From Roseomonas aeriglobus (GTDB taxonomy: Bacteria > Pseudomonadota > Alphaproteobacteria > Sphingomonadales > Sphingomonadaceae), in contig JAFHKN010000002.1 of NCBI GenBank assembly GCA_016937575.1, positions 558,001-622,000 of the forward strand: DNA of 64,000 nucleotides, in the 5' to 3' direction. Below are positions 1 to 14,816 of this stretch, in pieces. Both the position numbers and the translations under genes were made by a program. Under the pieces are notes generated by a model. It worked only from the letters and a program-made list of their open reading frames with translations. It did no database searches and was not told where the DNA came from. Numbering within the stretch: the stretch's first letter is position 1; each line of letters opens with the position of its first letter.

Positions 1-177
1 AGAAAGGACAGTCCCGGGCACAGTCTGCGGGCGGGATTCCTGATCCAGGCAGGCTGGCAGAACGCCAACCTGTTCGAGATGCGCGAGCATAGCCGCCACG
101 CTTCGCTCGAAAAAGTCAGCGAGTGTGCGTGCGACCACGAGCAGTTTCACAAGTATGCGGCCCAAGGCTTTCTGTGA
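1..177 (+). CDS. Tyrosine recombinase/phage integrase, C-terminal part only (5' end outside window)
   Basis: Reading frame 1 is open from the first base to the TGA at 175-177 and gives 58 residues that match the end of a site-specific integrase. A GHSLRAGF block carries the HxxR catalytic pair, an SRH block carries the third His, and the tail ends YAAQGFL. Enzymes of this family cut and rejoin DNA through a Tyr about ten residues after the SRH block. Here that position reads Cys (S-E-C-A-C-D where relatives have x-x-Y-V-R-D), so the copy may be inactive. The downstream gene starts inside its stop (GTGA overlap). It probably marks one end of an integrated element. The family call is firm; activity cannot be judged from this fragment. 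Confidence 0.8.
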   Translation, partial: RKDSPGHSLRAGFLIQAGWQNANLFEMREHSRHASLEKVSECACDHEQFHKYAAQGFL

Positions 178-416
178 GCGGCGACGTGAGGGCGGCCGGC
201 GCGCATGGCGCGTGGCGGCCGATCGCCGAGCTGCCGGTCGAGCTGAAGGACGGCCGTTACGTGCTGCTATGGGTGCGCGCCCGCCCGCTGGTCGCCTTCT
301 GGGCAAACTACGAGAACGGCGGCGATTGGTCGACCGACGACGGGCTCCGCCCGATGCCTTCCATGTTCGCCGAGCTCGTGCATCCGCGCGGGTCTGGGCC
401 GATCCACGACGCCTAG
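174..416 (+). CDS. Small DUF551-like hypothetical protein
   Basis: This 80-residue protein uses a GTG at 174 that overlaps the integrase stop codon as GTGA, which suggests translational coupling. A longer start at 123 would run back through integrase coding sequence and is less likely. The pattern WRPIAELP, then VLLW, then FWANYENGGDW, then a proline and histidine near the end resembles DUF551-type small phage and island proteins, whose function is unknown. It has no signal peptide or membrane segment. The position directly behind an integrase fits a mobile-element passenger gene. The resemblance is weak and based on spaced Trp and Pro residues only. Confidence 0.5.
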   Translation: MSGDVRAAGAHGAWRPIAELPVELKDGRYVLLWVRARPLVAFWANYENGGDWSTDDGLRPMPSMFAELVHPRGSGPIHDA

Positions 417-558
417 CAGGACGAATGATGCCGCCTTCTCCTCCCTTGTCGGCGAAGACCTTGACCGGCATCGATCATGATCGAGCCGATCGGAAAACGG
501 ACCCGACCCGGGTTCGTACGCCACGGGCGGCCGCGCACAGCGACTCGTCGGTCTCGCT

Positions 559-2197
559 ATGACGCTCGACGGATTTCTCACGGTCCTCGCGCTCGCGGCG
601 GCGATCTATGCCGTTCTGTCCCCCGTTCAGCGGCAGCGCGTGTCACTGACCTGGCGACCTCAGCTGTTGCTAGCCCTGCCCGTGCTGGTGCTGATCCTCG
701 GGTTCGAGCTCTACGACTGGTCGCCCCCGGCGTGCCCGGTCGTGCTTGGCGATATCTGCTCCGTCTTAATCCTCGGCGGCGCGGAAACGGAAGTGGCGCG
801 CAAGTTCGCCTTCCTGCTCGCCTTTGCGTGGCTGTTCGGGGCGGTGACCATTCAAGCTGTCGTCAAACCCACCCTGTCGAGCGTGCCGGCGTTCACGGAG
901 GTCGCGACCGCGCTGATTGACGAGGAACAATATGGCGACGCGTTGAAGCTGGTGGAGCCGCAGATCGGCCTCCTGGCGCGCGCCAGCCGACGGAAGTGTT
1001 TCCGGCAAAGGATGCGCGATTGGCTCGAGGAGTTCGGGCCGACGCCGGAGCACTCGTTCCGGCGCTATCTGCGCCGGTCGGGCCCACGCCGCCACAGCGG
1101 CGAGAACTGGCCCGATTGGGCGGCAGTGCCGGTGCGGTGGCTGGCGCGCTTCGTTCCGGCCGGGCGCCGGGGCGAACGTGCCGCCGGTGACCTTTTTCAG
1201 CTGTTGATGAGCTCGCCTCAGCTGTTCGACTATATTGTGTCTCGCAGACCATACTTCGCACTCGGCTTGGTCCGCGAGCAGGTCTATGGCGGCGCTGACT
1301 TTCTCGAGCGTTTTCCTTGGCGAGCTGATGCGTCGGCCGGGCAGTGCTCTCTATCAAGAGGTCGCCACCAACGACCATTCCGACGGGTTGGTCGGCTACC
1401 ATCTTCCTGCCCGCAATCGTATCCTCCACTTCCTGTTCGCCGATGCCAAGGTCGCTGAGGAGCTGTCGGCGTGGCAGGGCGTGGGCGACTATCTGAAGCG
1501 CCTGCTCAGCGGAGACGAGCGGCCCGATTATTGGGTTTGGCTCAATGGCCGGCCCGATTGGTTCGAGCGGGATCAGATGCGCGACCCGACCTACGTCGGC
1601 ATGTTCTTCTTCGACATCATGGTCAGTTCGGCCGCCAAGCAAGGTGTCGGCTACCACATGTGGCTCTACTACTTCACCTCCTTCGGCGAGATGCTCGAGC
1701 GCGGCTACGATTCGAGCGCTGCCGGCATAGACCGGACTGCCGAGTTTCCGAGCCGCGCCGCCCGCCTGCTCTACGAGCTGGTGAGCCACCTGACTGCTTG
1801 GGTCGGCATGCTGCGGCACCTTCCCGAAGGTGCAGTGCACCGCGGAGTCCCCGACCGACCAGATTACCCGGCCACCATACCCTTCGCTGCGGCCCAGGCG
1901 CTGGGACGCGTGCTCGCGGTAGCGGTCATGTCGCAGAAGGTGGACGACGGGGTGATTCAAACGCTCCACGATGTCGCGATCCGGACGATCAAGGAATTGC
2001 ACCCCGACGAGGGGGATCGGTCGGCTCTCCGCTCTTACTTGATTAACGCGCTGCTGAGCGGCGGTGGGCGAAAGAGCGACCCAGGCTACCTCACGCGGCT
2101 CGCAAAGCTTCTCGATCGGAATGACGACCTGATAGAGTATGAGATCCCCGACTATGTGGCGGCGCTCAACTCGCGGATCGAAGGGACGGATCGATGA
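559..2197 (+). pseudogene. Membrane protein gene with one-base frameshift (unknown family)
   Basis: Two overlapping open frames join into one protein of about 545 residues if one base is removed in the run 1311-1316 (ttttcc). The first frame reads up to ...FLERF and the second continues LGELMRRPG.... The corrected length is a whole number of codons. The N-terminus has three likely membrane helices (about residues 5-25, 34-52 and 85-105), followed by a long mostly helical soluble part rich in Trp and Tyr. I do not recognise the family. It lies 85 bp upstream of a coiled-coil gene and a nuclease-like gene in the same direction, so the three may form one unit. The indel could be a real mutation or a sequencing error in the homopolymer. 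Confidence 0.6.
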
Positions 2198-2282
2198 AGG
2201 AGACGGAGATCAGGAGACAACCGTGGACGTGCCGGCGAGGGCTACCTACGACCGGGTGGCGTGATGAACTGGAAGCAGAGCG

Positions 2283-3005
2283 ATGAGCCTCTACCTCAGC
2301 GAGCACGAACGGTCCGCACTTGCGTCGATCAACTCCAATACGCTGCGCGAGCTGGTTGACGAGGCGGTATGGACCACCCGCTCAAGCGCGCTCCGCGAGC
2401 TCCGACTTGCAAGCTGCGGTGTCTATGTCGCCGAGCGACTGCGGCGTTTCGAACGCGACCTCGACAGCTACGCCAAGGCAAAATCGGCGCAGAAGCGGAG
2501 CGATACGCGCGCGAGGGCGAGCAGCGCCGGGAGCGAACTCGTCCGCGCGCTCCGCGAGATGCAGGACCGAATGGCGACAGAGGACAAGGAGCTCGAGCGC
2601 TTCCGCATCGACGACCTGATTCCGCCGCCCCACCGCCTGCGTGAGCGGATCGAGGTACGGGTCGGCTTCCAATGGCGCGACACCGCCTCGGACTCATGGC
2701 GGTTCGGCAGCATCACATTCGCCCATGACGTCCAGCTGCGCCCCGATTATGAGAAGCCGGTGCCGAAGCGGAAGCCGAGCGCGGCGAAGCAGGATGAGGA
2801 GCGCCAGGACGAGCTCTACCGCCGCTGGGAGGATCTCCGGTCGCGGGCGCTCGGCGCGGTGCGGGAGTTTTTTCAAAAGGGCGGCGATGGCGCCGCGATC
2901 CCCGAGAGGTTCGAAGCGCAGCCCGGAATGCGAAGCCGCTTTCTCGACAATTTCAGCTGCGATTTCTGGCTCGATCGGGCCGCGGCATCCGGCGCGGCGG
3001 GCTAG
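2283..3005 (+). CDS. Hypothetical coiled-coil protein
   Basis: This 240-residue protein of unknown function starts at ATG 2283. Residues about 50-115 are rich in Arg, Lys, Glu and Ala with heptad-like spacing, and residues 160-200 form a second charged helical stretch, so coiled coils are likely. Between them is a short beta-like block (VRVGFQWRD, WRFGSITF). There is no signal peptide and no catalytic motif that I can see. The next gene begins 9 bp after its stop, which points to an operon with the PD-(D/E)XK-like gene and probably the frameshifted membrane protein upstream. A structural or adaptor role is only a guess. Confidence 0.65.
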   Translation: MSLYLSEHERSALASINSNTLRELVDEAVWTTRSSALRELRLASCGVYVAERLRRFERDLDSYAKAKSAQKRSDTRARASSAGSELVRALREMQDRMATEDKELERFRIDDLIPPPHRLRERIEVRVGFQWRDTASDSWRFGSITFAHDVQLRPDYEKPVPKRKPSAAKQDEERQDELYRRWEDLRSRALGAVREFFQKGGDGAAIPERFEAQPGMRSRFLDNFSCDFWLDRAAASGAAG

Positions 3006-3014
3006 GATCGCGCC

Positions 3015-3563
3015 TTGGCCAATATCGAGCTGCATTCCACCCACTCGACCCTCCGCGAGCGGATCGTCGAGCATGTGTTCGTCGGCGAGGCGCTTCGCGC
3101 GTTATGGCGGCGCGGCATCACCGACGTCGAGGTGCTGCGCTCCGAATTTGATGCCCACGGTTACGATCTGGTCATGCGGCGTGGGGCGGTGGACCGCCAC
3201 ATTCAGTTCAAGACCGGCGTGCGGGACAAGCCTGCGCCGGTATCGGTCGGTCGCGCGCTGGCCGAGAAGCCAAGTGGCTGCGTGATCTGGATCTGCGTGA
3301 CGCTCGACCTCGCGATCGGCCCGTTCTGGTGGTTTGGCGGCGGGCCCGGCGAGCCCCTCCCCGATCTCCTGGGGTTCAGGAACCCGAAGCGCAACGGCCG
3401 AAACAAGGCCGGCGATCGGCCACCGCGCAGGAACCACAGCAAAGTGCCGACGCGTTACTTCAGCCGAGTGGACGGGATCGACGCCATCCTGGAGATCCTC
3501 TTCGGCCCGCTTCCGGTCGGGTCGGCACCAGCGGTGCCGGAGGATGCACGTGACGCCGCCTAG
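3015..3563 (+). CDS. PD-(D/E)XK-like hypothetical nuclease
   Basis: The 182-residue product starts at TTG 3015, 9 bp behind the coiled-coil gene. Its first half looks like a restriction-endonuclease fold: helix RERIVEHVFVGEALRALWRRG with Glu15 and Glu19, then HGYDLVM with Asp51, then HIQFKTG with Gln64-x-Lys66, which matches the D...(E/Q)xK core. Proteins with this core often bind or cut DNA. Residues 90-108 form a strand plus WWFGGGPG. The C-terminal third is basic (RNPKRNGRNK) and could bind nucleic acid. The stop codon overlaps the end of the converging GIY-YIG gene by four bases. Nuclease activity is inferred from the motif only. Confidence 0.6.
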   Translation: MANIELHSTHSTLRERIVEHVFVGEALRALWRRGITDVEVLRSEFDAHGYDLVMRRGAVDRHIQFKTGVRDKPAPVSVGRALAEKPSGCVIWICVTLDLAIGPFWWFGGGPGEPLPDLLGFRNPKRNGRNKAGDRPPRRNHSKVPTRYFSRVDGIDAILEILFGPLPVGSAPAVPEDARDAA

Positions 3564-4414
3564 TTGCGATTAAGCCCCATCTCGCGGCTCTGGAGCTTAT
3601 CCTTCCAGCGCGCTTCGAGCGCCATCAGCTCGGTGTCAGCTGCGGCCGAGCCGACCGTCTCCAGAACCGAGCCCCGGTAGTCGCTCGCCTCGCGGCTCTT
3701 GAGCGCGACGTTGCCGCCATGGCCAGTGACGAAATAGTCACGCCACCGCGCGAGGAAGCCACCGCCGCCCGACCCCAGCCCGACATATCGCTCACGCGTG
3801 CGCGGGCACGTCAGCAGATAGATGCCGCGGGTTGCGGCGAGGGCCGCCCGCCAGCCGGCCGGGATCGTCTCGATCTCGGCGCGGTTGAGGATGAGCGCGT
3901 CGAAGCCTGGGAGCTCATCCTCGCTGAAGCTGCGCCGCAGCTCGACGACCGGCTTGCCCGCGCGCGCGCCGTCGACCCGCTGCACCCATTGCCGGTAACC
4001 GCTGCCCCAGGCGATTCAGAGGCGGCCTACATAGTCCGCCAGCGCCGGCATGGGCGCGAGGCGATAGAGATTGCAGCTGCCGCCCGGCTCGGGCCGGCCG
4101 GTGATCGGATGCGGTCGTTCTTCGGGCAACGGTCCGACCAGCTCGGCGCTGTACATTCCCACGAACAGCGTCTCGGTGCTGCCAGGCAGGCCGACGAACG
4201 AGGCCCAAATTGGCGCGCGGAGGTCCGGCTTGTCGCCGAACGCCTGCGTTTCCTGATAGGCATCGAAGCGGGGGCGCTGCTCGCGCCACAGCGCGTAAAG
4301 CGATGGGAAGGCGGGGTAGCGTCCGTCCTTGTGGCGCAGCAGCCGCACGTCGCGGCGGGCAAGCCCGGCGCTGTCGAGGAGCGTGGTGAAGGTCAGCGGC
4401 GGCGCGGCGGTCAC
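3560..4414 (-). pseudogene. GIY-YIG nuclease family protein interrupted by an in-frame TGA
   Basis: Translation from GTG 4414 gives 132 residues, then a TGA at 4018-4016, and the same frame continues for 151 more codons to 3560. The two halves read as one protein. The first half (LLRHKD.RYPAFPSLYALWR, then FVGLPGSTETLFVGMY) is a typical N-domain. The second half carries the nuclease core RGIYLLTCPRTRERYVGLG, a FLARWRDYF block with the catalytic Arg, a Glu near LMALEARW, and the usual tail SREMGLNRN. The stop falls between YVGRL and IAWGSGYRQW. The GTG overlaps the upstream gene's stop as GTGA. Either the gene is dead, the TGA is a base error, or two fragments are made. Confidence 0.75.
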
Positions 4415-4917
4415 CGCTCGGCTCCATGGCGGTGCTCGCGGTCCAGCTCGGAGAAGTCCGTCAGCGCGTCGCACGCCATGCAATGGTACATCCAGCTCGC
4501 CTCCTGAAAGTGCATGCCGCACATGCAGCCGCAGAACGGGCAGCATTCCTCGAGTTCGAGATCGCCCCATTCCCAAACGCCAAGATATTCAGGGACCGCG
4601 TCTCGGTCGTAGCCGGTGATCTCGAAGGCATCGGTGTTCTTGGCGACATAGCCATCGACGCCGGCGCGCGACAACATCGGCAGCGCGTCCGCAGGCTCAA
4701 TCGCGAACCACTCGCCGGAGAGCCTGCGGGTCGCGAAATGGGCGTGAAGCGCGCGCTCCAGCGCGTGATCATCCGCGGCGTTGATCCACCCCACTACTGC
4801 GAGCGCGACGGGGTTGCCGGTCTGGAGGTCGCGGCGGCGCTTCTCGATGTTCCGCGCCCGCCCGATCTTCGTGAAGACGCGGTCGTTCTCGACCTGCGAG
4901 ATGAAGTAAACAGCCAT
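4411..4917 (-). CDS. Mug113/T5orf172-type GIY-YIG domain protein with Cys-rich tail
   Basis: This 168-residue protein starts at ATG 4917. Residues 1-73 (VYFISQVENDRVFTKIGRARN, LQTGNP, ALHAHFATRRLSGEWF) match the Mug113/T5orf172 branch of the GIY-YIG superfamily, which is common in phages and islands. Catalytic residues present include Tyr4, Arg20/22 and Glu69. The C-terminus has seven cysteines between residues 125 and 149 (CCPFCGCMCG and CMAC), which looks like a zinc ribbon. Its stop overlaps the start of the second GIY-YIG gene as GTGA, so the pair is translationally coupled. It is divergent from the nuclease run that begins at 5032. DNA cutting is expected from the family but not shown. 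Confidence 0.75.
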   Translation of the reverse strand: MAVYFISQVENDRVFTKIGRARNIEKRRRDLQTGNPVALAVVGWINAADDHALERALHAHFATRRLSGEWFAIEPADALPMLSRAGVDGYVAKNTDAFEITGYDRDAVPEYLGVWEWGDLELEECCPFCGCMCGMHFQEASWMYHCMACDALTDFSELDREHRHGAER

Positions 4918-5031
4918 CGATCAGAATCCGTGGCCTGCTCCTCCCAACACCTTCATAATGGCGTACTCTGCGCCGATGTCGAGCACGCCGCTGCCGTTGA
5001 CAGTCGGGGACCCGCCCGTTCAGCTCGCGGG

Positions 5032-5724
5032 ATGTCCGCTGCCCGCCTCCGCGAGATCGTCAATGTCGCCATTCCCCGGCTGTTCGAGCAGATCCGGGGT
5101 GGGCGCATCGTGTGCGAGAGCGAGGCAACGCTCCAGCTCCATCTCGGCCGCATCATCGCCACGGTCGGCGATCTTTATCTGGTGAGCGAGCGCGAGACCT
5201 TCTCGATCGAACTGGAAAAGCCGCTTCGGGGCGGTCGCGAAAAGCGCGGGCGGATCGACATCTGGTTTCAGCTGACCTTGACCGACGGCACGGTGACGCG
5301 CTGCGCGATTGAGCTCAAGTTTTTCAAGGAAGCGAACCGCCGCGAACCGAACAACCGCTACGACGTCTTCAAGGATATCGCGCGATTGGAACGGTGCAAG
5401 GATGTGGCCGACATCGCCTTCATGCTGGTCGGCACGGACCATCAGCATTATATCTCCCGTGCGAGCTACTCCAAGAACACGGCTGATTTCGATATCCGGC
5501 ACGGGGCGAACTACCGGGCCGGAACGCGCCTCGAATATCGGACCAACGCCCCCTACGATGTGCCGATCACGCTCGCTCACGACTACGAATTCAGATGGGC
5601 GGAACTCCCGGACACGCATTACCACGGCAGGACACTTCACTTCCTGCTAGTCGAGGTGTCTCCGGATCAGGAGATCGAGCCGGCGACAGTCCCGACGCCC
5701 GCTCAATCATTCCAGTCGGCATAG
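5032..5724 (+). CDS. PD-(D/E)XK nuclease-like protein, first gene of the 5.0-10.7 kb run
   Basis: The 230-residue product starts at ATG 5032; the frame is open further upstream, but that part lies antisense to the Mug113-type gene and does not look coding. The core is RGRIDIWF (Asp76), then CAIELKFFK (Glu94-x-Lys96), with an upstream helix ESEATLQLHL offering Glu31. This is the classical D...ExK arrangement of restriction-like nucleases. The later part (NNRYDVFKDIARLE, ADIAFMLVGTD) also fits the fold. There is no transmembrane segment. The caspase-like gene starts 47 bp after its stop in the same direction, so they are probably co-transcribed. Role and substrate are unknown; a defence effector is one reasonable idea. 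Confidence 0.65.
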   Translation: MSAARLREIVNVAIPRLFEQIRGGRIVCESEATLQLHLGRIIATVGDLYLVSERETFSIELEKPLRGGREKRGRIDIWFQLTLTDGTVTRCAIELKFFKEANRREPNNRYDVFKDIARLERCKDVADIAFMLVGTDHQHYISRASYSKNTADFDIRHGANYRAGTRLEYRTNAPYDVPITLAHDYEFRWAELPDTHYHGRTLHFLLVEVSPDQEIEPATVPTPAQSFQSA

Positions 5725-5771
5725 CTCGATGCACATTGCCTCGTGCGGCGATTGCGGGAAGAACCAGGCTC

Positions 5772-6359
5772 ATGAGCAAACTCAAGAGCGTCTATATCGT
5801 CGAGTCTTTGGACCCGAAGGACTTCTACGAACGCATGCTCGACGGCCACGCCGCCAACGAGATCCTGCGCATCCTGGGGACGAGGACCGAGTATCGTGTC
5901 GCCTTCACCCGCAAGCTCGCGCGCAGGGCGATCGCGGAAGCGGCGCGCGGCGACTACGAGGTCCTGCACTTCTCCTCGCATGGCAACAGCGAAGGGGTGT
6001 TCCTGACCGACGAAAGGTTTCTGACCTGGGCCGAGTTCGTGGAACTGATCCGGCCCGCGGCAGGCGCGGACAAGGCGCTGGTTATGGCGACCTGCGGTGG
6101 CGGCGATAAAGCGCTGACAAAGGCGCTGACTGCCGCCGGCGTCGTCTTCGGCTGGGTATTCGGGTCGACGGCGGACTCCGTCCACTTCTCGGATAGCTGC
6201 CTCGCCTGGTCGATCCTCTACAACCGCCTCTACGATTACGGTCTCAAGCGAGAAAAGCTCAAGATGACGCTCAAGGCGATCAACGCCGCCATCGTCGGCG
6301 ACTTCGTCTATCGGCGATGGACCGGTAAGCGATATCGTCGCTTCCCCGCAAAGGCCTAG
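5772..6359 (+). CDS. Small caspase-like (CHAT-like) protein
   Basis: This 195-residue protein starts at ATG 5772. It has the strand-His-Gly and strand-Cys layout of clan CD peptidases: VLHFSSHGNSEGVFL with His70-Gly71, and ALVMATCGGGD with Cys108. A later block GVVFGWVFGSTADSVHFSD matches the substrate-side strand seen in caspase-like island proteins. The whole length is essentially one domain, with no sensor repeats attached, unlike TPR-CHAT fusions. The next gene begins 3 bp after its stop, so it is coupled to the second nuclease-like gene. In known prokaryotic systems such proteases are activated by a partner and cleave host or effector proteins. Here that is inference from fold and neighbours. 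Confidence 0.65.
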   Translation: MSKLKSVYIVESLDPKDFYERMLDGHAANEILRILGTRTEYRVAFTRKLARRAIAEAARGDYEVLHFSSHGNSEGVFLTDERFLTWAEFVELIRPAAGADKALVMATCGGGDKALTKALTAAGVVFGWVFGSTADSVHFSDSCLAWSILYNRLYDYGLKREKLKMTLKAINAAIVGDFVYRRWTGKRYRRFPAKA

Positions 6360-6362
6360 CAC

Positions 6363-7475
6363 GTGCCGCTGTTCTCCCATCGGTTCACCCCCGCCTCCGC
6401 CTCCCCGCTCGGCACCTCGGTCGACCTGACGGTGCAGGAGGTCGAGGACGCGGGGCTGCGCGAGGTCCTGCAAACCCCCGGCGTGGCGCTCGGCAATTGG
6501 GGCCTGCTCAGCGCGCTGCTCCATCCCGGCAGCAGCCACTTCCTGTTCCACGCGCCGCTCGGCCAAGCCCGCGAGGTAAAAACCGCGGTCTCGGGCCTGT
6601 TCGGCCGCTTCATCGCCCGCGCCTACGCCACCCGCTACCTAGGATACTCCCACTTCGTGCACATCACCAAGCCGCCAATGATGCTGAGCGGCGCCATGAA
6701 TGGCCTCCTGCGGCGTACGCCGCGGTTCCCGTCGGGCGACTTGCCCGACTGGGTGACGTGGGGTGCCGGCGCGGGTCTCGGCATCGTCGAGGCGAAAGGT
6801 TGCCATGACCAGGGCAGCCCCGCCGCCGCGCTGGAGCGCGCGCGAAAGCAGGCGCTGCGGGCGGAGATCACGGTCGGCGGCCGACCGGCGACGTTCAAGC
6901 GCTTCGCCATCGCCACACGCTGGGGATATGCGACGCCGACGCGCACCCAGCCGATGCTCTGGGTCCACGACCCCGTCGCCGAGGGCGGTGAAAGCCCGGA
7001 GGCTGCCGCAGCGCTCGCGCTCGGTGTTGCCCGCTACCACGCTGCGCGCCTGCTCGCGCCGCTCGGCTACCAAGAACTTGCCGATCAGCTGCTTGGCCTG
7101 GCGCGCGACCCGCTCCCCGCCAGCCGCAACCGTCGCCAGCGGCGCGGTCGCGAGGTTCTGGCCGAAGCGCCTGTGTTCGAGATGGACGACGTCGAGGGCG
7201 CGGCCGGCGAAGCGTTGCTCGGCGCAGTCGTGGTACGCGGATCGAAGCTGGCGCCGGCCGACCTGTCGCCATCCGACCGAGAAACGCTGGAGCGGCTCGA
7301 CCTGAACCCGACTTTCGTCGGCATCGATCGCCAGGAGGTCAAGCGGCTGATCGAGGGCGAAACGACACTGCCCGCGCCACCTACCGACGCGCAGCGTGTT
7401 CTCGTAGGGGACGATGGCGCCGGCGGCCGCGTCGTTCGGCTCGGGAGAGACGGTGGGACTGTCCGGCTCGTCTGA
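6363..7475 (+). CDS. Hypothetical protein with PD-(D/E)XK-like motif
   Basis: The 370-residue product starts at GTG 6363, three bases after the caspase-like gene. Around residues 128-147 it reads LPDWVTWG...LGIVEAKGCHD, giving Asp129, Glu143 and Lys145, the ordered residues of a D...ExK nuclease. The helix that follows (AALERARKQALRAE) fits the fold. Residues 50-105 are hydrophobic with aromatic residues and may form a substrate or partner surface. The C-terminal 130 residues are charged and less structured. I do not recognise the family beyond this motif. A 177 bp gap follows it, so the downstream hydrolase may have its own promoter or a longer leader. Confidence 0.6.
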   Translation: MPLFSHRFTPASASPLGTSVDLTVQEVEDAGLREVLQTPGVALGNWGLLSALLHPGSSHFLFHAPLGQAREVKTAVSGLFGRFIARAYATRYLGYSHFVHITKPPMMLSGAMNGLLRRTPRFPSGDLPDWVTWGAGAGLGIVEAKGCHDQGSPAAALERARKQALRAEITVGGRPATFKRFAIATRWGYATPTRTQPMLWVHDPVAEGGESPEAAAALALGVARYHAARLLAPLGYQELADQLLGLARDPLPASRNRRQRRGREVLAEAPVFEMDDVEGAAGEALLGAVVVRGSKLAPADLSPSDRETLERLDLNPTFVGIDRQEVKRLIEGETTLPAPPTDAQRVLVGDDGAGGRVVRLGRDGGTVRLV

Positions 7476-7652
7476 TCGCAACCCGGTGGCAGGGCACGAC
7501 CGGACCTCTGCCGCTCCGGCACCGGTGACGCCGGGAGATTGAAGAGTGGCGGGGGTGTTCGGTTGGGATGGCGTTATGTTCGATGGCGGACCATCGACGT
7601 GGTGTAGACGCGGAGGAAAAGTGACGAGGCAGACCTTTCTCGAGCGCAACTT

Positions 7653-9131
7653 ATGCGCGGCGGGATCATCGCAGTGATCGACGAAGGGGCCGCGCGGCTC
7701 GCGCTGTGCAACCTCATGCACCGGCTCGCTCGTCGCTACCACGAGGCGGCGCGGGCGATCACTACCGATCACCTGAAGCCGCTGTTCGAGCGCTGGAGCG
7801 AGGCGCGCGCATTGCTGGCCGCCGCAACCGGGCTCGAACCTGCCGAGGACGACGCGCTCGCGGCAGCCGAGACGGCGGACGTCGCGGCGCGAGTGGCTGC
7901 GGGACGCAACGCGCTGGTGGAGCTGATCCGGGCTGGTGAGGCGGAGCTTCGCGACACCGCCGAGGACGCACGCAGCGCCGGCATCGCGGCGGACCTGCTC
8001 TACCGGATCGACGCATCGCTGGCCGAGGTCAGCGACGACCTCTTCCGCGAACTCGGCACCCTGCGCGCCACCTGGGAGCCTGCGCCGGGGCGGTATGAGC
8101 GCTCCTTCGGGCTCGGTCGCATGACCACTGGTATCCCCGGACTGACCCAGCCGCAGTCGCGCATCTTCGACCTTTGGTACGCCACCAACCGGCGCGCGAT
8201 CGTCCAGCAGGACAAGGTCGTCGGCTACGGCGCCGAGCGCGACGCGGAGACCCATCTTGGCCGCTGCGGCGTTATCATCCCTCAGGCGCACGAGATCGGC
8301 TCGACCGGCTCGCCGTGGTGGCGGCGGCTCTCGCGCGGTGACGATCGGCTGAGCATCGACAGCATCGATCCGGCAGAACCCGATGACTATTGGGCAAGCC
8401 TTGTCGATCGCGTCGGGGCCGAAGCCGGTCCGGGCGATGCCGTCGTGTTCCTGCACGGTTACAATGTCAGCTTCGATGGCGCCGCGCTCCGGGCCGCGCA
8501 GATCGGGGCCGATCTCGGCCTTACCGGTCCAATGGCGTTCTTCAGCTGGCCGTCGCGCGGCCGGATCCTGTCCTACGCGATCGACGAAGCTGCCATCGAG
8601 GCGAGCGAGGCGGCGATCACGCAGTTCCTCGTCGATGTCGCCACCAGGAGCACCGCCGCCCGGGTCCATCTCGTCGCCCACAGCATGGGCAATCGCGGGC
8701 TGCTGCGCGCGGTCAACCGCATCGCTGGGAAGGCCGCGGATCGAGCGGCAAAGCCCTTCGGTCAGATCATCCTCGCAGCTCCGGACGTCGACAGCGACCT
8801 GTTCCGCGATCTCGCCGGCGCCTACGGCGAGGTCGGCACGCGCACCACCTTGTACGTGTCCGCAGCGGACCTGGCGATTCGCTGCTCGCGCCTGTTCCAC
8901 GGCGCCGCCCGCATCGGTTTCACGCCGCCGGTGGCGGTGATCGACGGGATCGACACGGTCAACGTGACCAACGTCGACCTGACGCTGCTTGGCCACGGCT
9001 ATGTCGCGAGCTGTCGTCCGGTGCTCGGCGACATGCAGCAGCTGCTGGTCAACGACCTGCCGCCGCCCCAGCGCGCCTTTCTTAAAGAGATCGCCGGCGG
9101 CGGCACGCGGCACTGGGAGATCGCCGGCTGA
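7653..9131 (+). CDS. Alpha/beta hydrolase, DUF900 (COG4782)-like, with helical N-domain
   Basis: The 492-residue protein has a helical N-terminal part (1-150, rich in Ala, Glu and Arg) and a C-terminal serine hydrolase domain. The hydrolase motifs are clear: VVFLHGYNVSFDGA (about 264-277), MAFFSWPSRGR, the nucleophile elbow VAHSMGNRG with Ser344, and LAAPDVDSD as the acid region. DUF900 proteins are esterase/lipase-like enzymes whose substrates are mostly unknown. There is no signal peptide, so the protein is probably cytoplasmic. The start ATG 7653 is the first good one but lacks a strong ribosome site. The HEXXH gene starts 41 bp downstream. Lipase-like domains do occur as effectors in defence loci, which is only a suggestion here. 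Confidence 0.75.
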   Translation: MRGGIIAVIDEGAARLALCNLMHRLARRYHEAARAITTDHLKPLFERWSEARALLAAATGLEPAEDDALAAAETADVAARVAAGRNALVELIRAGEAELRDTAEDARSAGIAADLLYRIDASLAEVSDDLFRELGTLRATWEPAPGRYERSFGLGRMTTGIPGLTQPQSRIFDLWYATNRRAIVQQDKVVGYGAERDAETHLGRCGVIIPQAHEIGSTGSPWWRRLSRGDDRLSIDSIDPAEPDDYWASLVDRVGAEAGPGDAVVFLHGYNVSFDGAALRAAQIGADLGLTGPMAFFSWPSRGRILSYAIDEAAIEASEAAITQFLVDVATRSTAARVHLVAHSMGNRGLLRAVNRIAGKAADRAAKPFGQIILAAPDVDSDLFRDLAGAYGEVGTRTTLYVSAADLAIRCSRLFHGAARIGFTPPVAVIDGIDTVNVTNVDLTLLGHGYVASCRPVLGDMQQLLVNDLPPPQRAFLKEIAGGGTRHWEIAG

Positions 9132-9172
9132 CACCCCATGTTGGCGGGCCGCCTTCTTCTTGATCGTCGATC

Positions 9173-10465
9173 ATGCCCATTCGTTCGTCCATCCTGTTCC
9201 CGAACACCTCCGCTCGCGCGGCCTACTCGCCGCGCGAGATCATTGTCCACATCGAGGAGGAGTTCGATCCCGCGCGCGCCGACGAGGCCTATCGGCGCGA
9301 CTGGTTTGAGGCGCACCTTCCCGTCCTCGTCCACGAGTTCCAGCACGGTCTCGACCATGTCGGCACGGTCGCCGGGCGCGAGCTGCTGACCTGCCTCTCG
9401 GACGCCCATTTCGGACTGGAGAGCAAGCTGGCTGGCGACAGCAGTCAGCTATGGCGGTTGGCGGCCCTTCGCGACGCCGAGCGGCGGTTCGACCGAGGCG
9501 CCTATTTCCACGAATATGACCCCGACTATCGCTGGCTGACGCCGCGGCTGCCGCGATGGCGCTGGGAATCGTCGGTCGGGCTGGCGTTCGATCACGCCGG
9601 GCGCTCCGACGCGGCTGAGCCCATCTACTTCCTGCGGTTCACCGACGTCGACCAGAACCGCTTCGTCTCACGCCAGCCGATCACGGCCGCGGCCCTGTTC
9701 GAGACCAGGGCGATGTTCGTCGAGCTGGAGCACGCGGCGCTGATCGCCTTCCGGGAGGCGCAGGGCGATGAGGAGCGTCTGAGCGCGTTCGGCCGCGATC
9801 AGGCCCGGACCTTCTACGATCCTTCGCTGACCCTCTATTCCGCGCCGGCCCATCTCGCCGCGAGCCGGTGCGGCGACGGCGATCCGCTGACGGCGTACCG
9901 CATCGCCGCGCATGCTGCCGGCGTCGTCCTCAACCTCGCGCCCGACCTCGATCTCGACGTAAGGATTCCGGACGTCTTGCGCGACGAGCGCGGTATGGAG
10001 CGCCTGCAGCAGCTTGTCGCCCGGCGAGACCCTGGCTTCCTGTTCGTCGTCCTGATCTCGGCCGCTCCGCGCTACGACGGCGACACCGATTGCTGGCTGC
10101 GCGATGCCTTGGCGGCGGCAAACTTCCCGCCACTGGACGCGATCTACGAGGCGGCGCTCGGGCACCTCGCCTATCCGAGCGTCCGCCACGGCACGCAGTT
10201 CGACATGATCTACTTCGAGGGTTGCGCCGCCGGCCACACCAACGCCGCGCGCACCCGGCCCACCCGCGGGCTCCTGGACGTTCCGACCATGAGCAGGCTG
10301 AACACCGTCGAGGGACCCTTTGCCCTGCCCAACTACTTCGCTGGCGACCGAGCGCTGGCGCCTCCGTGCGCCTCGATCCTTGAGGCCGATCGCCAGCGCG
10401 AGGCGGTGGAAGGTGCCGCGGTACTGAGCAGCCAAATGGCGGAGTTCCTGGCGGCGTGCCGTTAG
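9173..10465 (+). CDS. Hypothetical protein with HEXXH metalloprotease-like motif
   Basis: This 430-residue protein begins at ATG 9173. Residues 54-58 read HEFQH, the zinc-binding HEXXH pattern, inside LPVLVHEFQHGLDHVG, with further His62. The preceding segment VHIEEEFDP and the following helix fit a minimal zincin core, but the third ligand is not obvious. The rest (about residues 90-420) is a helical region that I do not recognise. It has no signal peptide and no membrane helix. It follows the hydrolase gene by 41 bp and precedes a truncated gene by 39 bp, so it is part of the same co-directional run. Peptidase activity is inferred from the motif alone. Confidence 0.65.
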   Translation: MPIRSSILFPNTSARAAYSPREIIVHIEEEFDPARADEAYRRDWFEAHLPVLVHEFQHGLDHVGTVAGRELLTCLSDAHFGLESKLAGDSSQLWRLAALRDAERRFDRGAYFHEYDPDYRWLTPRLPRWRWESSVGLAFDHAGRSDAAEPIYFLRFTDVDQNRFVSRQPITAAALFETRAMFVELEHAALIAFREAQGDEERLSAFGRDQARTFYDPSLTLYSAPAHLAASRCGDGDPLTAYRIAAHAAGVVLNLAPDLDLDVRIPDVLRDERGMERLQQLVARRDPGFLFVVLISAAPRYDGDTDCWLRDALAAANFPPLDAIYEAALGHLAYPSVRHGTQFDMIYFEGCAAGHTNAARTRPTRGLLDVPTMSRLNTVEGPFALPNYFAGDRALAPPCASILEADRQREAVEGAAVLSSQMAEFLAACR

Positions 10466-10504
10466 CCGGCTGCCAGCGCCCGCGCGTGTGCTAGTCCGCG
10501 CCCG

Positions 10505-10752
10505 ATGCGTTGCTCGCTGACCCGCGATGAGGTTGCCGCCCTGGTCCGGCGCGATGTCGGTCGGATCGGCGGAGGGGCCCTGAGAGCAATCCGCGCCGTG
10601 GTCGCGGAAGTCGCGGCGGCCGACGCCGGCGCCGACACGTCGAGCGAAAGCTCGCAGCTGCTGCGCTCGATCGCATTGAGGTTGTCGCCGCTGGTCGAGG
10701 AGACGGCCGCCACCCGATTGCAGGAAGTGCCGTTACTCGCGGCCGTCGGCGC
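10505..10752 (+). pseudogene. 3'-truncated gene at the end of the 5.0-10.7 kb run
   Basis: From ATG 10505 about 83 codons read as a helical protein fragment (MRCSLTRDEVAALVRRDVG..., LRSIALRLSPLVEE, LQEVPLLAAVGA) with a strongly GC-rich third codon position, like real genes here. After about 10750 the same frame simply reads the antisense of the recombinase gene and ends at 10870. The natural explanation is that this gene lost its 3' end when the recombinase-bearing DNA joined at about 10750. It starts 39 bp after the HEXXH gene and so was probably the last gene of that operon. I do not recognise the product. Confidence 0.45.
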
Positions 10753-11271
10753 CATGGCGTTGCGATACCGCCCGCCCTTGCCGCGCTCGACCCGGAGCAG
10801 CATGCGCTTGCTGTCGATGTCACGGACCTTGAGGGCGGCGACCTCGGCCGCGCGCAGTCCCGCACCATAGGCGACGGACAGCGCCGCCTGATGCTTGAGG
10901 CACGTGGTCGCGTCGAGCAGCCGCGCCACCTCGTCCCGGCTCAGCACCACCGGCAGCTTGCGCTCATGCCGCATCCGGACCAGCTTGCGCGCCAGGTCCG
11001 GCCGGTCGAGCGTCTGCGTGAAGGAGAACCGCAGCGCCGACACGATGGCGTTCATGGTCGGCGCCGGCACATCCAGTTCGCCTTGCTCGATCTGGAAGCG
11101 CCGGACGTCCTCCGCCGTTGCGGTGTCCGGTAAGCGCCCTAGGAACGTCGCGAACCGGCCGACATCGCGGATGTAGTTGCGTTGCGTCTCGCGGCCGAAG
11201 CGCCGTATCTCCATCTCGTCGATGAGACGCTGGCGTAGCGGGCTGACGGCAACAGGAATGAGGGTGGTCAT
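10753..11271 (-). pseudogene. XerD-type tyrosine recombinase, 3'-truncated
   Basis: From ATG 11271 about 173 residues match a XerC/XerD-like recombinase. There is an N-terminal SAM-like DNA-binding domain (RRFGRETQRNYIRDVGRFATFL, LRFSFTQTLDRPDLARKLVRM) and the first part of the catalytic domain (YGAGLRAAEVAALKVRDID with the first catalytic Arg, then ERGKGGRYRNAM). The homology stops dead at RNAM (10753). The frame stays open to 10462 but encodes a Ser/Thr/Ala-rich sequence without the HxxR, H or Tyr motifs. The gene is therefore a fragment and cannot be active. Genes of this type often accompany IS91-like transposases or integrative elements, but no transposase is seen here. Confidence 0.75.
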
Positions 11272-11275
11272 GGCA

Positions 11276-11296
11276 GGACTCCTTCTGGTGGAGTCC
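11276..11296. repeat. Perfect 7-bp inverted repeat upstream of the recombinase fragment
   Basis: GGACTCC, a 7-base spacer, then GGAGTCC forms a perfect stem of seven pairs. It begins 4 bp upstream of the recombinase start codon at 11271, where it could bind a repressor (for example the recombinase itself) or fold in the leader RNA and hide the ribosome site. Nothing else in the sequence decides between these. Confidence 0.5.
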
Positions 11297-11870
11297 CGAT
11301 GCTCTGCCTGCCTCCTGCCGCGCTCAATCGGCGCGCAACGCTCGTTACATTACCTCAACCGTGCCCCGCACGCCCCTCCCGCGCAGCGGGTTCGTGCTTC
11401 CACCAGCGGCAGGCGTTCGAGCCCCCTGCCCTCACTGCTGAACGAACGGCAGCTTACCCCGGTGGGTCGCCCGAAACCGGCCAGGCCGCTCTCCACCCAA
11501 TTTTGTCCGTCGGCTTCGATGCATGGGTAATCGGTTCCGGCATCTGCTCAAGGATATCAGCTGCCGGAACAGAAGCCTGACGTGAAAGCGACGGCCGGCT
11601 CCTTACATCGTCGGTAGGATTCGCCCGCGCCATGCTGGTTGCATGATTGCTCTGAAGCTCAGTTCCGTATCGGGAAACCGACAGACTCCCGCACTTAGTG
11701 TCGCAGGCCGAATTAGGCGGGGGAATGCTGTCCTCGATTGCCTTCCCACTGCGCGAGCGGTGGAAAAGGGGCCCATTGCCCGAGCGGGACCAGAGACACT
11801 TAACATCGAAAGCCTGTCGAGCGACTTCATCGGAGAGCGATTTTTGTTTTTGGGGCGGGGGGCGCAATAA
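11297..11870. other. Non-coding stretch before the relaxase, with a 9-bp inverted repeat (candidate oriT or promoter region)
   Basis: No convincing gene is present in this stretch of almost 600 bases between the recombinase fragment and the relaxase. The main structure is an inverted repeat: GTTCCGGCA at 11534-11542 and TGCCGGAAC at 11562-11570, extendable inward by CTG/CAG. Relaxase genes often lie next to their transfer origin, so this region is the natural place to look for oriT, but I see no recognisable nick sequence. The last part (about 11840-11870) is T- and G-rich and should hold the relaxase ribosome-binding region. Confidence 0.4.
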
Positions 11871-14816
11871 ATGAATTCGCCTTCGTCGAATTCGGGCGGC
11901 TCCGCCGGCCCTGTCCTACCCCCGCCCCCGCACGAGTTCTTCGTCGTCCGGCCGGACGGCAGTTGCACCCCTGCAACTGCAAAGACGCTGGGAGAGGTGC
12001 TTAAACAGCACCGCACCGAAGCCCGCAAACAAGCTAGGATCAAGCGCCACGAAAAGGCCGTTGAAATCCAGATGGCGAACGAGGATCGCGCCGCGGCACG
12101 GCGTCTGCTGCAAGAGCTGGCGGAGACGGAGCGTGACGCGATCCGCTGGGCGGCGCGACTACGGGTTCGGGTCAAACCAGAGCCGCCAAAGAGCCGCACA
12201 TCGAGTGTGCTCAAACGGGTGACGATCACGCCGACGCGCATCAAGGGCCCATCATCGCTGCGCGCCGCATCATCATGGGTGACCGACGATTACGGCAGGC
12301 GCGGTGTTATCTGGCAACAAAGCTATCTCGGTCGCAAGTCGCCGAACTTCTACCGCGGTGCTGCGCGCGACAACTGGGAATATGAGGTTCGCGACGAGGC
12401 GGTGCTGCTCGATGCGGCCGGCGAGCCCGTCATCATCTCGAACATGGGCGAGGACTGGGTCGAGATCGGCGCAGCCTGGCAGGCGCTGGAGGATGCGAGC
12501 ACGCGCAAGAACGCCAAGATCCAGATCCGCGCAATCGCACCGTTCGATGCCGACGCGAGTGAGGAGGAGACGATCGCCGCGCTCCGCCATTTCTCCAAGA
12601 CCGTGCTCGAGCCGCTCAATCTGCCGTACTCGGCGGTGATCCACCGCGCGCCCGATGGCGGCGACGAGCGCAACCGCCATCCGCATATATCATTCTCACT
12701 GCGCCCGATGCGACGGGTCGAGGCCTATTGCTGGGAGGTGGCCGACGAGGTGCGCGGTGAGCTCGACGGTCGCGACGGCGTGCAGATGCTGCGTCACCTG
12801 TGGGCGCACGCGATGTCGGAAGCTGCCGAGCAGGCGCGCAGCAACCGTCGCTACACGGGCCTTGGCTACGGTGCGCGCGGCTTGCCGTTCGAGGCGGGCG
12901 AACATCTCGGCGAAGCTAGAAGCGCGATGGCTCGGCGCGGTGAGCTTGTCTGGGCGCATGAGCGCAACCGCATCAAGAGCGCGCGCAACGCCGCACGCCG
13001 CGCGATCCGCGACGCCGACCGGAAGATCGCTGCGCTGACCAAGGTCCGTGATGCCGCCGTAGCCAGCATGTCGGCGCGAAGCGAGGGCAGCATGCGCACG
13101 CGCATTGTGAGTTCTGCGCAGCCCCACATTTCATCGGCGCGGCTGAAGAATTCCAGCCGCAGGCAAGCTAATGTAGAGATGCTGACAGTGTCGAGCGTGT
13201 CGGCCAAGACGCCACCGCTCGTGGCATCGACCGTCGGGTCGGAGAGGGAGCCGGACCGCCGCGTTCCGCTTGTGGCGAGCCAGAAGCCGCGCGTTGGTCC
13301 GATGCCGATGAAGCTTGCGGCAGACGTGGAGCGCTTCCAGCGAATGCCACGGCGCTCGATCTGCTCGCTTCAGAATGAGGCGGTTCAACCGCTGGTCACA
13401 TCACGCCAACCAGAGCCGCCGGCCCGCTTGATTCAATCGAAGCCGGCAGCTGCCCCGGCCGAGCTGAAAGTTGCGAGGGCGATCGGGGAGCGGTCACCGC
13501 CGCTGCTCGCCTCGCGTGTCGATGCCGGCTTGGTGCCGACGTTATCCGTGCGCGCGAAAGTCGCCGGGAAGCTCAAACCGCCGCTCGTGCCCTCGTCGCG
13601 GGCCTTACACACAGATCTCAATATCGCCGCCAAGATCGACGAACTGCTCCACGCGCTCTCCGCCGCGCGTGTCGAGCGCGACAATATGCGCGTCATGGTG
13701 CAGGATCGTGCGATTGCGGCCGACCGCTCGATCGCACAGCAGTCTGAAAATTCGCCCTCTGCGTCGATGGAACGAGCGCCGGTACCGCCAGCACGGCCGC
13801 GATCATCGCCGCCAGTCGGGGCCGTATCGATCGGCAGTCAGCGGCGGCGCTTCAGCCGAAGCTGGGCGTCAGACGATCGACATATCATACCGACGCGCGC
13901 GGAGCTGGAAACGCGCTACTGGCTGGAAGCGCATCCCCGGATGCCGTCCAAGGCGAACGGTACTCGTCCCCTCGATGCCGCCGATCGTCTTCAGCTCGAC
14001 CGGATCCATACCCGCGACGTCTATGTGGCCGACTATGGTGGCGAGGCAGCCCTCACCATCGACGGTGCCAAAGCACACGCGATGGGCATATCCGATGAGT
14101 GGCTTGCTCGACCTGAAATCCAGCAGTCACTCGGCGACATTCGGGCCGAGCAGCAGAAGGTGGTGACGGCACTGCTGAGCGAGGTCGATCTTCGGCCGCT
14201 CGATTTCGCACGGCACGGCATTCGTGCTTGGCCGCGTGACCTGGACCCGGATCAACTCAAGCGTCTCGACCGTTGGGCGGCAGACGATGGTTTTCAGCGT
14301 GACACGTTTGGCATCGAGCAGCGCATCCAGGCCGCGCACAACGAGCGCGAGCGTCGAGCCCGGGAGGCCACAGCGAGGAATATCACTCCAGCCAAGCCCG
14401 CCGCGGCTATCCCGGATGGGTTTGGCGGTTGGAATAGCACGCCGGCGCCACCGTTCACTGGTGAGCACCCGACGGTTCGAATGATTGCCTTCGATCGCAA
14501 GACCGGCAAGCCCACCAACCAGTTGTTGATGCTGCTCGATCTGGCGGCGACGCATCCGCGCCGCATCGTCTTCGCCACCGACGGTAAGTTAACGGCGACA
14601 CAAGGCGCCCCGGCGCTGATGCTGCCCTTGCTGCACGGATGGCGGCATGACCAGCGTGTCGCCGATCTGGTCGTCGCCACCGTTCGCGCCAGCCGTGAAG
14701 CAGGGCAGCCGGCATGGCCACCCGAGATGTTACCAGAGATGCGGGCCTACCATGCCCGTAGCTCGCAACATCCGGGTCGCGCACTGATCGATTGGAGCAG
14801 CGGACCCAGCCGGTAA
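11871..14816 (+). CDS. MobA/MobL-family relaxase with long C-terminal extension
   Basis: The 981-residue protein starts at ATG 11871. A charged N-terminal extension (1-130) is followed by a relaxase domain at about residues 135-350. It includes NLPYSAVIHRAPDGGDERNR and then HPHISFSLRP with the metal-binding His270 and His272, and a late block YTGLGYGARGLPFEAGEHLG typical of MobA/MobL proteins. Such proteins nick the transfer origin and lead the strand into a recipient cell. The middle (400-650) is low-complexity, rich in Ser, Pro and Arg. The C-terminus (660-980) is folded but unrecognised and may hold a helicase- or primase-like partner domain. No mating-pair genes are in the window, so the element is probably mobilisable rather than self-transmissible. 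Confidence 0.8.
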   Translation: MNSPSSNSGGSAGPVLPPPPHEFFVVRPDGSCTPATAKTLGEVLKQHRTEARKQARIKRHEKAVEIQMANEDRAAARRLLQELAETERDAIRWAARLRVRVKPEPPKSRTSSVLKRVTITPTRIKGPSSLRAASSWVTDDYGRRGVIWQQSYLGRKSPNFYRGAARDNWEYEVRDEAVLLDAAGEPVIISNMGEDWVEIGAAWQALEDASTRKNAKIQIRAIAPFDADASEEETIAALRHFSKTVLEPLNLPYSAVIHRAPDGGDERNRHPHISFSLRPMRRVEAYCWEVADEVRGELDGRDGVQMLRHLWAHAMSEAAEQARSNRRYTGLGYGARGLPFEAGEHLGEARSAMARRGELVWAHERNRIKSARNAARRAIRDADRKIAALTKVRDAAVASMSARSEGSMRTRIVSSAQPHISSARLKNSSRRQANVEMLTVSSVSAKTPPLVASTVGSEREPDRRVPLVASQKPRVGPMPMKLAADVERFQRMPRRSICSLQNEAVQPLVTSRQPEPPARLIQSKPAAAPAELKVARAIGERSPPLLASRVDAGLVPTLSVRAKVAGKLKPPLVPSSRALHTDLNIAAKIDELLHALSAARVERDNMRVMVQDRAIAADRSIAQQSENSPSASMERAPVPPARPRSSPPVGAVSIGSQRRRFSRSWASDDRHIIPTRAELETRYWLEAHPRMPSKANGTRPLDAADRLQLDRIHTRDVYVADYGGEAALTIDGAKAHAMGISDEWLARPEIQQSLGDIRAEQQKVVTALLSEVDLRPLDFARHGIRAWPRDLDPDQLKRLDRWAADDGFQRDTFGIEQRIQAAHNERERRAREATARNITPAKPAAAIPDGFGGWNSTPAPPFTGEHPTVRMIAFDRKTGKPTNQLLMLLDLAATHPRRIVFATDGKLTATQGAPALMLPLLHGWRHDQRVADLVVATVRASREAGQPAWPPEMLPEMRAYHARSSQHPGRALIDWSSGPSR

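What the first reader, a model, noticed from the sequence alone, without database searches (positions are those of the whole stretch)
5032..10752. Nuclease, caspase-like, nuclease, hydrolase and HEXXH genes in one run: candidate undescribed defence system
Five complete co-directional genes and one truncated gene lie with gaps of 47, 3, 177, 41 and 39 bp. The motifs are D76/E94xK96; H70 and C108; D129/E143xK145; a Ser344 nucleophile elbow; and H54EFQH. Combining two restriction-type nuclease motifs with a clan CD protease fold, a lipase-type hydrolase and a zincin-type motif in an island behind an integrase is typical of defence or toxin loci. I know no named system with this order. The defence role is inference.
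Basis: partly seen in the sequence, partly recalled or inferred. Interest (0 to 1): 0.75.

Follow-up and report, generated by a model that had tools for sequence, protein, structure and literature searches.

The report
Travelling block of undescribed defence genes
A run of five intact genes (two nucleases, a caspase-like protease, a hydrolase and a metalloprotease) lies in a 14-kb stretch of DNA shared by two related bacterial species; it looks like a cargo of separate anti-virus genes with changing partners rather than one five-gene machine, though the caspase and the nuclease beside it may work as a pair.

Summary
In detail: five intact co-directional genes, with gaps and motif residues as stated. 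The named residues of the caspase-like protein, the 370-aa nuclease and the HEXXH protein are conserved in the relatives aligned. In 41 distinct loci of 4 kb or more outside the genome, each of the five families was found without the other four. The one exception found is a sister species with a 98.9% identical 14.15-kb block (window -2654 to 11497) at another place. Between the copies the five genes show 29 synonymous and 16 non-synonymous changes, i.e. purifying selection. The block holds matches to known and candidate defence genes. So it is transferable defence cargo of mostly undescribed families, not a widely conserved system. The best internal link is caspase plus nuclease: in 4 of 9 genome loci the caspase is followed by an Mrr-like nuclease, and here another nuclease lies 3 bp downstream. 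That resembles published Canu caspase-nuclease systems (PMC12799240), but with a bare caspase and a PD-(D/E)xK-type, not MBL-fold, nuclease. Activation of the nuclease by the protease is inferred, not shown.

The parts
1..11497 (.). Part inside the window of a 14,153-bp block (from -2654, i.e. G000:C2 about 555,346, to 11497) shared at 98.9% identity with another species of the genus (G586) at a different place
   Evidence: different flanking sequence on both sides
3560..4414 (-). UzuA-like defence gene in two ORFs (4016-4414 and 3560-3985), broken here; also in two ORFs in the sister block
   Evidence: pieces searched apart
4411..4917 (-). T5orf172/MUG113 protein, weak match (9.6e-8) to defence candidate PDC-S57
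5032..5724 (+). nuc1: 230-aa putative PD-(D/E)xK nuclease (D76, E94xK96)
5772..6359 (+). casp: 195-aa bare caspase/CHAT-like protease (H70, C108)
6363..7475 (+). nuc3: 370-aa putative PD-(D/E)xK nuclease (D129, E143xK145), 3 bp after casp
7653..9131 (+). abh: alpha/beta hydrolase (DUF900) with about 165 extra N-terminal residues; Ser344
9173..10465 (+). hexxh: 430-aa putative zinc metalloprotease (H54ExxH58, third ligand perhaps E177)
10505..10752 (+). possible truncated ORF, not confirmed as a gene
10752..11271 (-). 5' part of a tyrosine-integrase gene lacking its 3' part

Best explanation
The run is part of a transferable 14-kb defence cargo block present in two species of one genus. It is a composite, most likely of at least three units rather than one five-gene system: nuc1; casp with the nuclease beside it (nuc3); and the abh and HEXXH genes. 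Most likely mechanism (inferred): on infection the caspase-like protease is switched on, cuts a partner protein, most simply the neighbouring nuclease, and frees it to degrade DNA and stop phage growth, perhaps at the cost of the cell. The hydrolase and the metalloprotease are separate effectors or modifiers acting in the same abortive-infection style. Shown: intact conserved genes, the same block at different places in two species, purifying selection, defence setting, exchange of partners. Inferred: protease-to-nuclease activation, DNA as target, the trigger, the division into units.
For: Block of 14,153 bp at 98.9% in a second species with other flanks; pooled 29 synonymous and 16 non-synonymous changes over about 1,325 and 3,826 sites in the five genes, dN/dS about 0.19 by simple counting. 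None of 41 other distinct loci of 4 kb or more has two of the families. casp is followed by an Mrr-like nuclease 64-90 bp downstream in 4 of 9 genome loci. In 199 family genomes the full-length nuclease at 71% identity or more occurs in 2, which are the 2 other casp genomes, and there is no match in the own genome. nuc3 directly follows HipA in 6 of 17 loci and a HipA remnant in a seventh, and AbiJ in 3, two of these near-identical plasmids. Published precedent: in Canu a caspase activates a downstream pro-nuclease (PMC12799240).
Against: casp-nuc3 adjacency itself was seen only in this block. In one of the four casp/Mrr-like loci (Mesorhizobium) both genes are frame-broken. The Mrr-like nuclease also occurs without casp: 58% identical in Rhizobium with another upstream gene, about 40% in two plasmids with opposite-strand genes upstream, 32% in Aliarcobacter. 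In the other 5 of 9 loci no nuclease was recognised just downstream of casp. I recognised no gating insertion in nuc3, but had no means to test for one. Metagenome contigs that carry nearer relatives (nuc3 up to 81%, hexxh up to 80%) could not be read, so a rarer nuc3-abh-hexxh unit is not excluded; those three genes also share a higher GC (0.69-0.71) than nuc1 and casp (0.61-0.62).
Confidence: 0.55

Rival explanations
1. Five separate single-gene (or solo-capable) defence effectors packed side by side, with no functional coupling between casp and a nuclease.
For: Each family occurs without the other four elsewhere. casp stands beside an integrase in Sphingobium and, as I read the translations by eye, among nucleoside-metabolism genes in Azospirillum. 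One nuc3 relative lies among housekeeping-like genes by my reading of the ORFs. nuc1 relatives lie without the others in five loci, one a weak piece.
Against: The casp plus Mrr-like nuclease pair is found in four genomes; nuc3 directly follows HipA or AbiJ in 9 of 17 loci plus one HipA remnant, so these proteins do tend to have partners; the casp-nuc3 gap is 3 bp.
Confidence: 0.3
2. One rare five-gene defence system.
For: Same strand, mostly short gaps, kept together with purifying selection in two species. Caspase and alpha/beta-hydrolase pairings are known in VMAP ternary systems (PMC7159879, passages seen).
Against: The two copies are 98.9% identical, so they count as one origin. No other locus examined holds even two of the families. 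No relative was found in the viral collection (38-41, four families) or in phage records (128-130, three families).
Confidence: 0.12
3. Genes for competition or maintenance of the mobile element (toxin-antitoxin-like) rather than phage defence.
For: The block sits in an integrative-element-like setting: serine recombinase, a weak ParB-like match and a ThiF-family gene upstream, relaxase downstream (90-92). nuc3 relatives pair with HipBA.
Against: I saw no small antitoxin-like partner in the run. Neighbours of single-gene relatives include restriction, AbiE, Zorya, PD-T7-3-like and SIR2 genes.
Confidence: 0.1
4. Decaying leftovers of several systems with no present function.
For: The same block holds a broken UzuA, a truncated integrase and a gene at 559-2197 that is split here but one open frame in the sister.
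Against: All five ORFs are intact in both species; pooled dN/dS about 0.19.
Confidence: 0.04

Closest known systems
Canu (caspase-nuclease) systems, KaeCanABC (PMC12799240)
   Same: A caspase-family gene with a nuclease gene downstream, in defence islands; the same logic is proposed.
   Different: In KaeCanABC, CanA has an Ig-like domain and forms a complex with CanB, and CanC is an MBL-type gated nuclease; here a bare 195-aa caspase-like protein and PD-(D/E)xK-type nucleases, with no gene between casp and nuc3.
Caspase plus alpha/beta-hydrolase pairs of VMAP ternary systems (PMC7159879)
   Same: A caspase-like peptidase and an alpha/beta hydrolase lie close together.
   Different: One gene lies between them here, and I recognised no vWA, MoxR or VMAP gene in the gene lists of the two blocks (by eye; only part of those genes was scanned with Pfam).
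HipBA and AbiJ modules
   Same: nuc3 relatives are the gene directly downstream of HipA (4-bp overlaps in L046, L061, L064, L078) or of AbiJ.
   Different: Neither hipA nor abiJ is next to nuc3 here.
Mrr-type restriction endonucleases / VRR-NUC and other PD-(D/E)xK nucleases
   Same: The casp-linked nuclease has a GVDV...QCK signature; nuc3 has PDW...EAKG and a predicted core that looks of that type.

Membership tests
Canu | caspase-fold protease with conserved His/Cys dyad | tested here: met
   H70 and C108 invariant in 34 sequences; weak CHAT and C14 matches below cut-off; the fold itself was not modelled
Canu | Ig-like domain on the caspase (CanA) | tested here: not met
   195-aa protein in which the conserved region covers nearly the whole length; no Ig match in Pfam at E up to 1 (4)
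Canu | MBL-type gated nuclease downstream (CanC) | tested here: not met
   nuc3 has no Pfam match at all at E up to 1 (4); its invariant motif and weak matches point to PD-(D/E)xK (47, 60, 83)
Canu | caspase cleaves and activates the nuclease | not testable with these tools
   needs biochemistry
PD-(D/E)xK nuclease superfamily (nuc3) | conserved D...ExK site | tested here: met
   D129, E143, K145 invariant in 31 sequences
PD-(D/E)xK nuclease superfamily (nuc3) | superfamily core fold | tested here: inconclusive
zinc metalloprotease, HEXXH type (hexxh) | HEXXH plus a conserved third ligand | tested here: met
   H54, E55, H58, E177, E184 invariant in 9 diverse sequences; which residue binds zinc is inferred
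zinc metalloprotease, HEXXH type (hexxh) | known zincin fold | tested here: inconclusive
   good model, pLDDT 90.1 (68), no informative PDB match
DUF900 alpha/beta hydrolase (abh) | profile match above cut-off and Ser in a nucleophile elbow | tested here: met
   142.5 bits against cut-off 20.5 (4); AHS344MG
A single five-gene system | gene order recurs in unrelated genomes | tested here: not met
   none of 41 other distinct loci with two of the families; only one near-identical block in a sister species; metagenome contigs not tested

The most novel reading that the evidence does not exclude
casp and the nuclease next to it form a minimal two-gene caspase-activated nuclease system in which the nuclease slot is exchangeable: an Mrr-like nuclease in other Sphingomonas and a Mesorhizobium, nuc3 here. 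It would be a second, independent bacterial version of the caspase-activated DNase idea, built on PD-(D/E)xK nucleases instead of Canu's MBL-type nuclease and without a sensor or Ig domain, while nuc3 is a portable nuclease that also serves HipA kinases and AbiJ.
Probability: 0.22. Interest if true: 0.75.

Novelty: new variant of a known kind. Interest (0 to 1): 0.5.

Why it matters
If right, caspase-to-nuclease wiring arose more than once in bacteria with unrelated nuclease folds, which would make the eukaryotic caspase-activated DNase one case of a general design. It also gives three little-described families (the bare caspase, nuc3 and the HEXXH protein) with conserved active sites, and a 14-kb natural block in two species that can be tested as a unit and gene by gene.

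Tried and rejected
Rejected: one conserved five-gene system; decay. Led nowhere: PADLOC on the five genes gave only a chance-level hit of nuc1 to Tin (E 0.044, 5); NCBIfam gave chance-level hits for nuc1 and abh and none for the other three; viral contigs for casp, hexxh, nuc3, nuc1 (38-41; abh not searched) and phage records for casp, nuc3, hexxh (128-130) gave nothing; PDB sequence search gave nothing for casp and two chance rows for hexxh, nothing for the Mrr-like nuclease; Foldseek and VIA gave only noise-like rows for hexxh. HEXXH profile in 385 class genomes: own genome only. nuc3 profile in 372 class genomes: own and 2 others. The ends of the shared block, searched for repeats of 11 bases within 100 bases of each end, gave one 11-base inverted match in the own genome, outside the block, and none in the sister. 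A caspase upstream of the plasmid copies of the Mrr-like nuclease was looked for with the casp profile and not found. Not met in print, as far as searches go (open-access library; listings, plus passages of three papers): a PD-(D/E)xK caspase-nuclease pair or a HipBA plus nuc3 module. In the HipA paper PMC8262856 the word 'nuclease' does not occur in the main text. Supplements of PMC12799240 were not read. Limits: contexts of metagenome proteins could not be read; the even draw of 199 family genomes did not contain G586, which the genus search found, so rarity figures are for the samples drawn. Many gene names in my gene lists are my own reading of translations, not tool output.

Full report
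WHERE IT IS. The window is G000:C2:558001-622000 of a 4.28-Mb genome. Upstream of the window lie a serine recombinase gene (window about -15431), a gene with a weak ParB match, a ThiF-family gene and others that I recall as PRTRC-cassette-like, then an AAA_13 gene matching defence candidate PDC-S06; downstream lies a MobA/MobL-type relaxase at 11871-14816 (90-92). The run is therefore inside an integrative-element-like island.

WHAT IS THERE. nuc3 has 231, of which 120 were listed and 30 aligned with the query; D129, E143 and K145 are invariant. hexxh has 16 including itself; H54, E55 and H58 are kept in the 15 of 16 rows that reach that part, and are invariant with E177 and E184 in a set of nine that includes plasmid relatives from Rhizobium, Sphingomonas, Priestia and two cyanobacteria.

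DO THE GENES TRAVEL TOGETHER? In 199 genomes of the family per search, own genome included, casp is in 3 (18), hexxh in 1 (19), abh-like proteins in 21, matching mainly over the DUF900 part, nuc1 in 5, one of them a weak piece, nuc3 in 3 (23). Apart from the own genome no listed genome has two of the five. Profile and sequence searches of all 83 sequences then held (window and loci) found, outside the own genome, no locus with two of the families; merging duplicates by hand these are 41 distinct loci of 4 kb or more (casp 12, nuc3 17, nuc1 5, hexxh 5, abh 2), some cut by contig ends, plus 19 abh loci of 2.0-3.8 kb that are too short to tell.

THE EXCEPTION. A later search of 25 genomes of the genus with the nuc3-abh-hexxh DNA found one other species (G586) with the whole stretch at 99%; 12 further genomes had only matches of 61 bases or fewer. 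Reading it showed a shared block of 14,153 bp at 98.9% identity, from window -2654 to 11497, holding PDC-S06, UzuA pieces, the T5orf172 gene, all five genes and the integrase piece, with unrelated sequence on both sides. In the sister the block lies next to a 1570-aa gene that matches PDC-S37 and Hhe and has no match in the own genome. Between the copies nuc1, casp, nuc3, abh and hexxh have 3/4, 4/2, 8/3, 6/3 and 8/4 synonymous/non-synonymous changes; pooled 29/16, dN/dS about 0.19 by simple counting. nuc1 alone (0.42, 7 changes) says little.

PARTNERS ELSEWHERE. casp: in Sphingomonas YR710, S. pruni, S. oligoaromativorans and Mesorhizobium sangaii an Mrr-like nuclease follows 64-90 bp downstream; in the Mesorhizobium copy both genes are frame-broken. 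In Sphingomonas 3P27F8 a PD-T7-3-like gene follows, in Sphingobium an integrase, in Azospirillum a gene I read as metabolic; the Azospirillum and Luteimonas copies share a small upstream gene (54% over 97 aa); the ninth locus is cut by its contig end. Matches to known or candidate defence families near casp include AbiE, a IIG restriction gene, PDC-S73 and SIR2/ThsA-like genes; 2 neighbours scanned, both from Sphingomonas YR710, gave none. In a tree of 12 casp copies the window copy falls in a 6-member clade (97/97) with the four nuclease-linked copies and the 3P27F8 copy; the order within it is mostly open. In 199 family genomes the full-length Mrr-like nuclease (94% and 71%) occurs in the 2 other casp genomes; 6 further genomes have weaker, partial matches of at most 37% and the own genome none. 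Against a strict pair, relatives of the nuclease occur without casp on Rhizobium, Agrobacterium and Aliarcobacter plasmids. nuc3: it directly follows HipA in 6 of 17 loci, a HipA remnant in one (L063, which also has a PD-T7-3-like gene 12 bp downstream), and AbiJ in 3, two of them near-identical; a distant relative lies downstream of ZorD. hexxh: downstream of a NACHT protein with a sub-threshold Mrr match in Rhizobium etli, and between a JukA match and a NERD-UvrD gene on a Sphingomonas plasmid.

READING. The run is a defence cargo block with parts that elsewhere keep other company. The tightest link here (casp-nuc3, 3 bp) has the same layout, protease then nuclease, as the casp/Mrr-like pair. 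The closest known system is Canu, where a caspase complex turns a downstream pro-nuclease into an active DNase (PMC12799240: parts 1-2 of 6 of the text and passages seen). Two features of Canu are not met here (Ig-like domain on the caspase, MBL-type nuclease), so this is 'works like', not 'is a'. Caspase and alpha/beta-hydrolase co-occurrence is known in VMAP systems (PMC7159879, passages), but I recognised no VMAP component here. Protease-to-nuclease activation, the trigger and the outcome for the cell are inference.

Noticed in passing
   Followed up: partly
L005:5445-9269 (Rhizobium etli plasmid): A NACHT protein with a sub-threshold Mrr match followed 21 bp later by a relative of the HEXXH protein: a candidate sensor plus metalloprotease pair.
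   Followed up: no
L054:9630-10582 and L056:157-1069: Distant casp copies (about 41%) in Azospirillum and Luteimonas share a small upstream gene (54% identical over 97 aa).
   Followed up: partly
window 559-2197: One 545-aa ORF in the sister block is split into two overlapping ORFs here; an intact copy exists in G586.
   Followed up: no
L105:1482-6191: In the sister species the shared block adjoins a 1570-aa PDC-S37/Hhe-type defence gene with no match in the own genome.
   Followed up: yes
L063:7989-10493 and L050:10001-11947: PD-T7-3-like genes (41% over 165 aa) lie directly downstream of nuc3 in one locus and of casp in another.
   Followed up: partly
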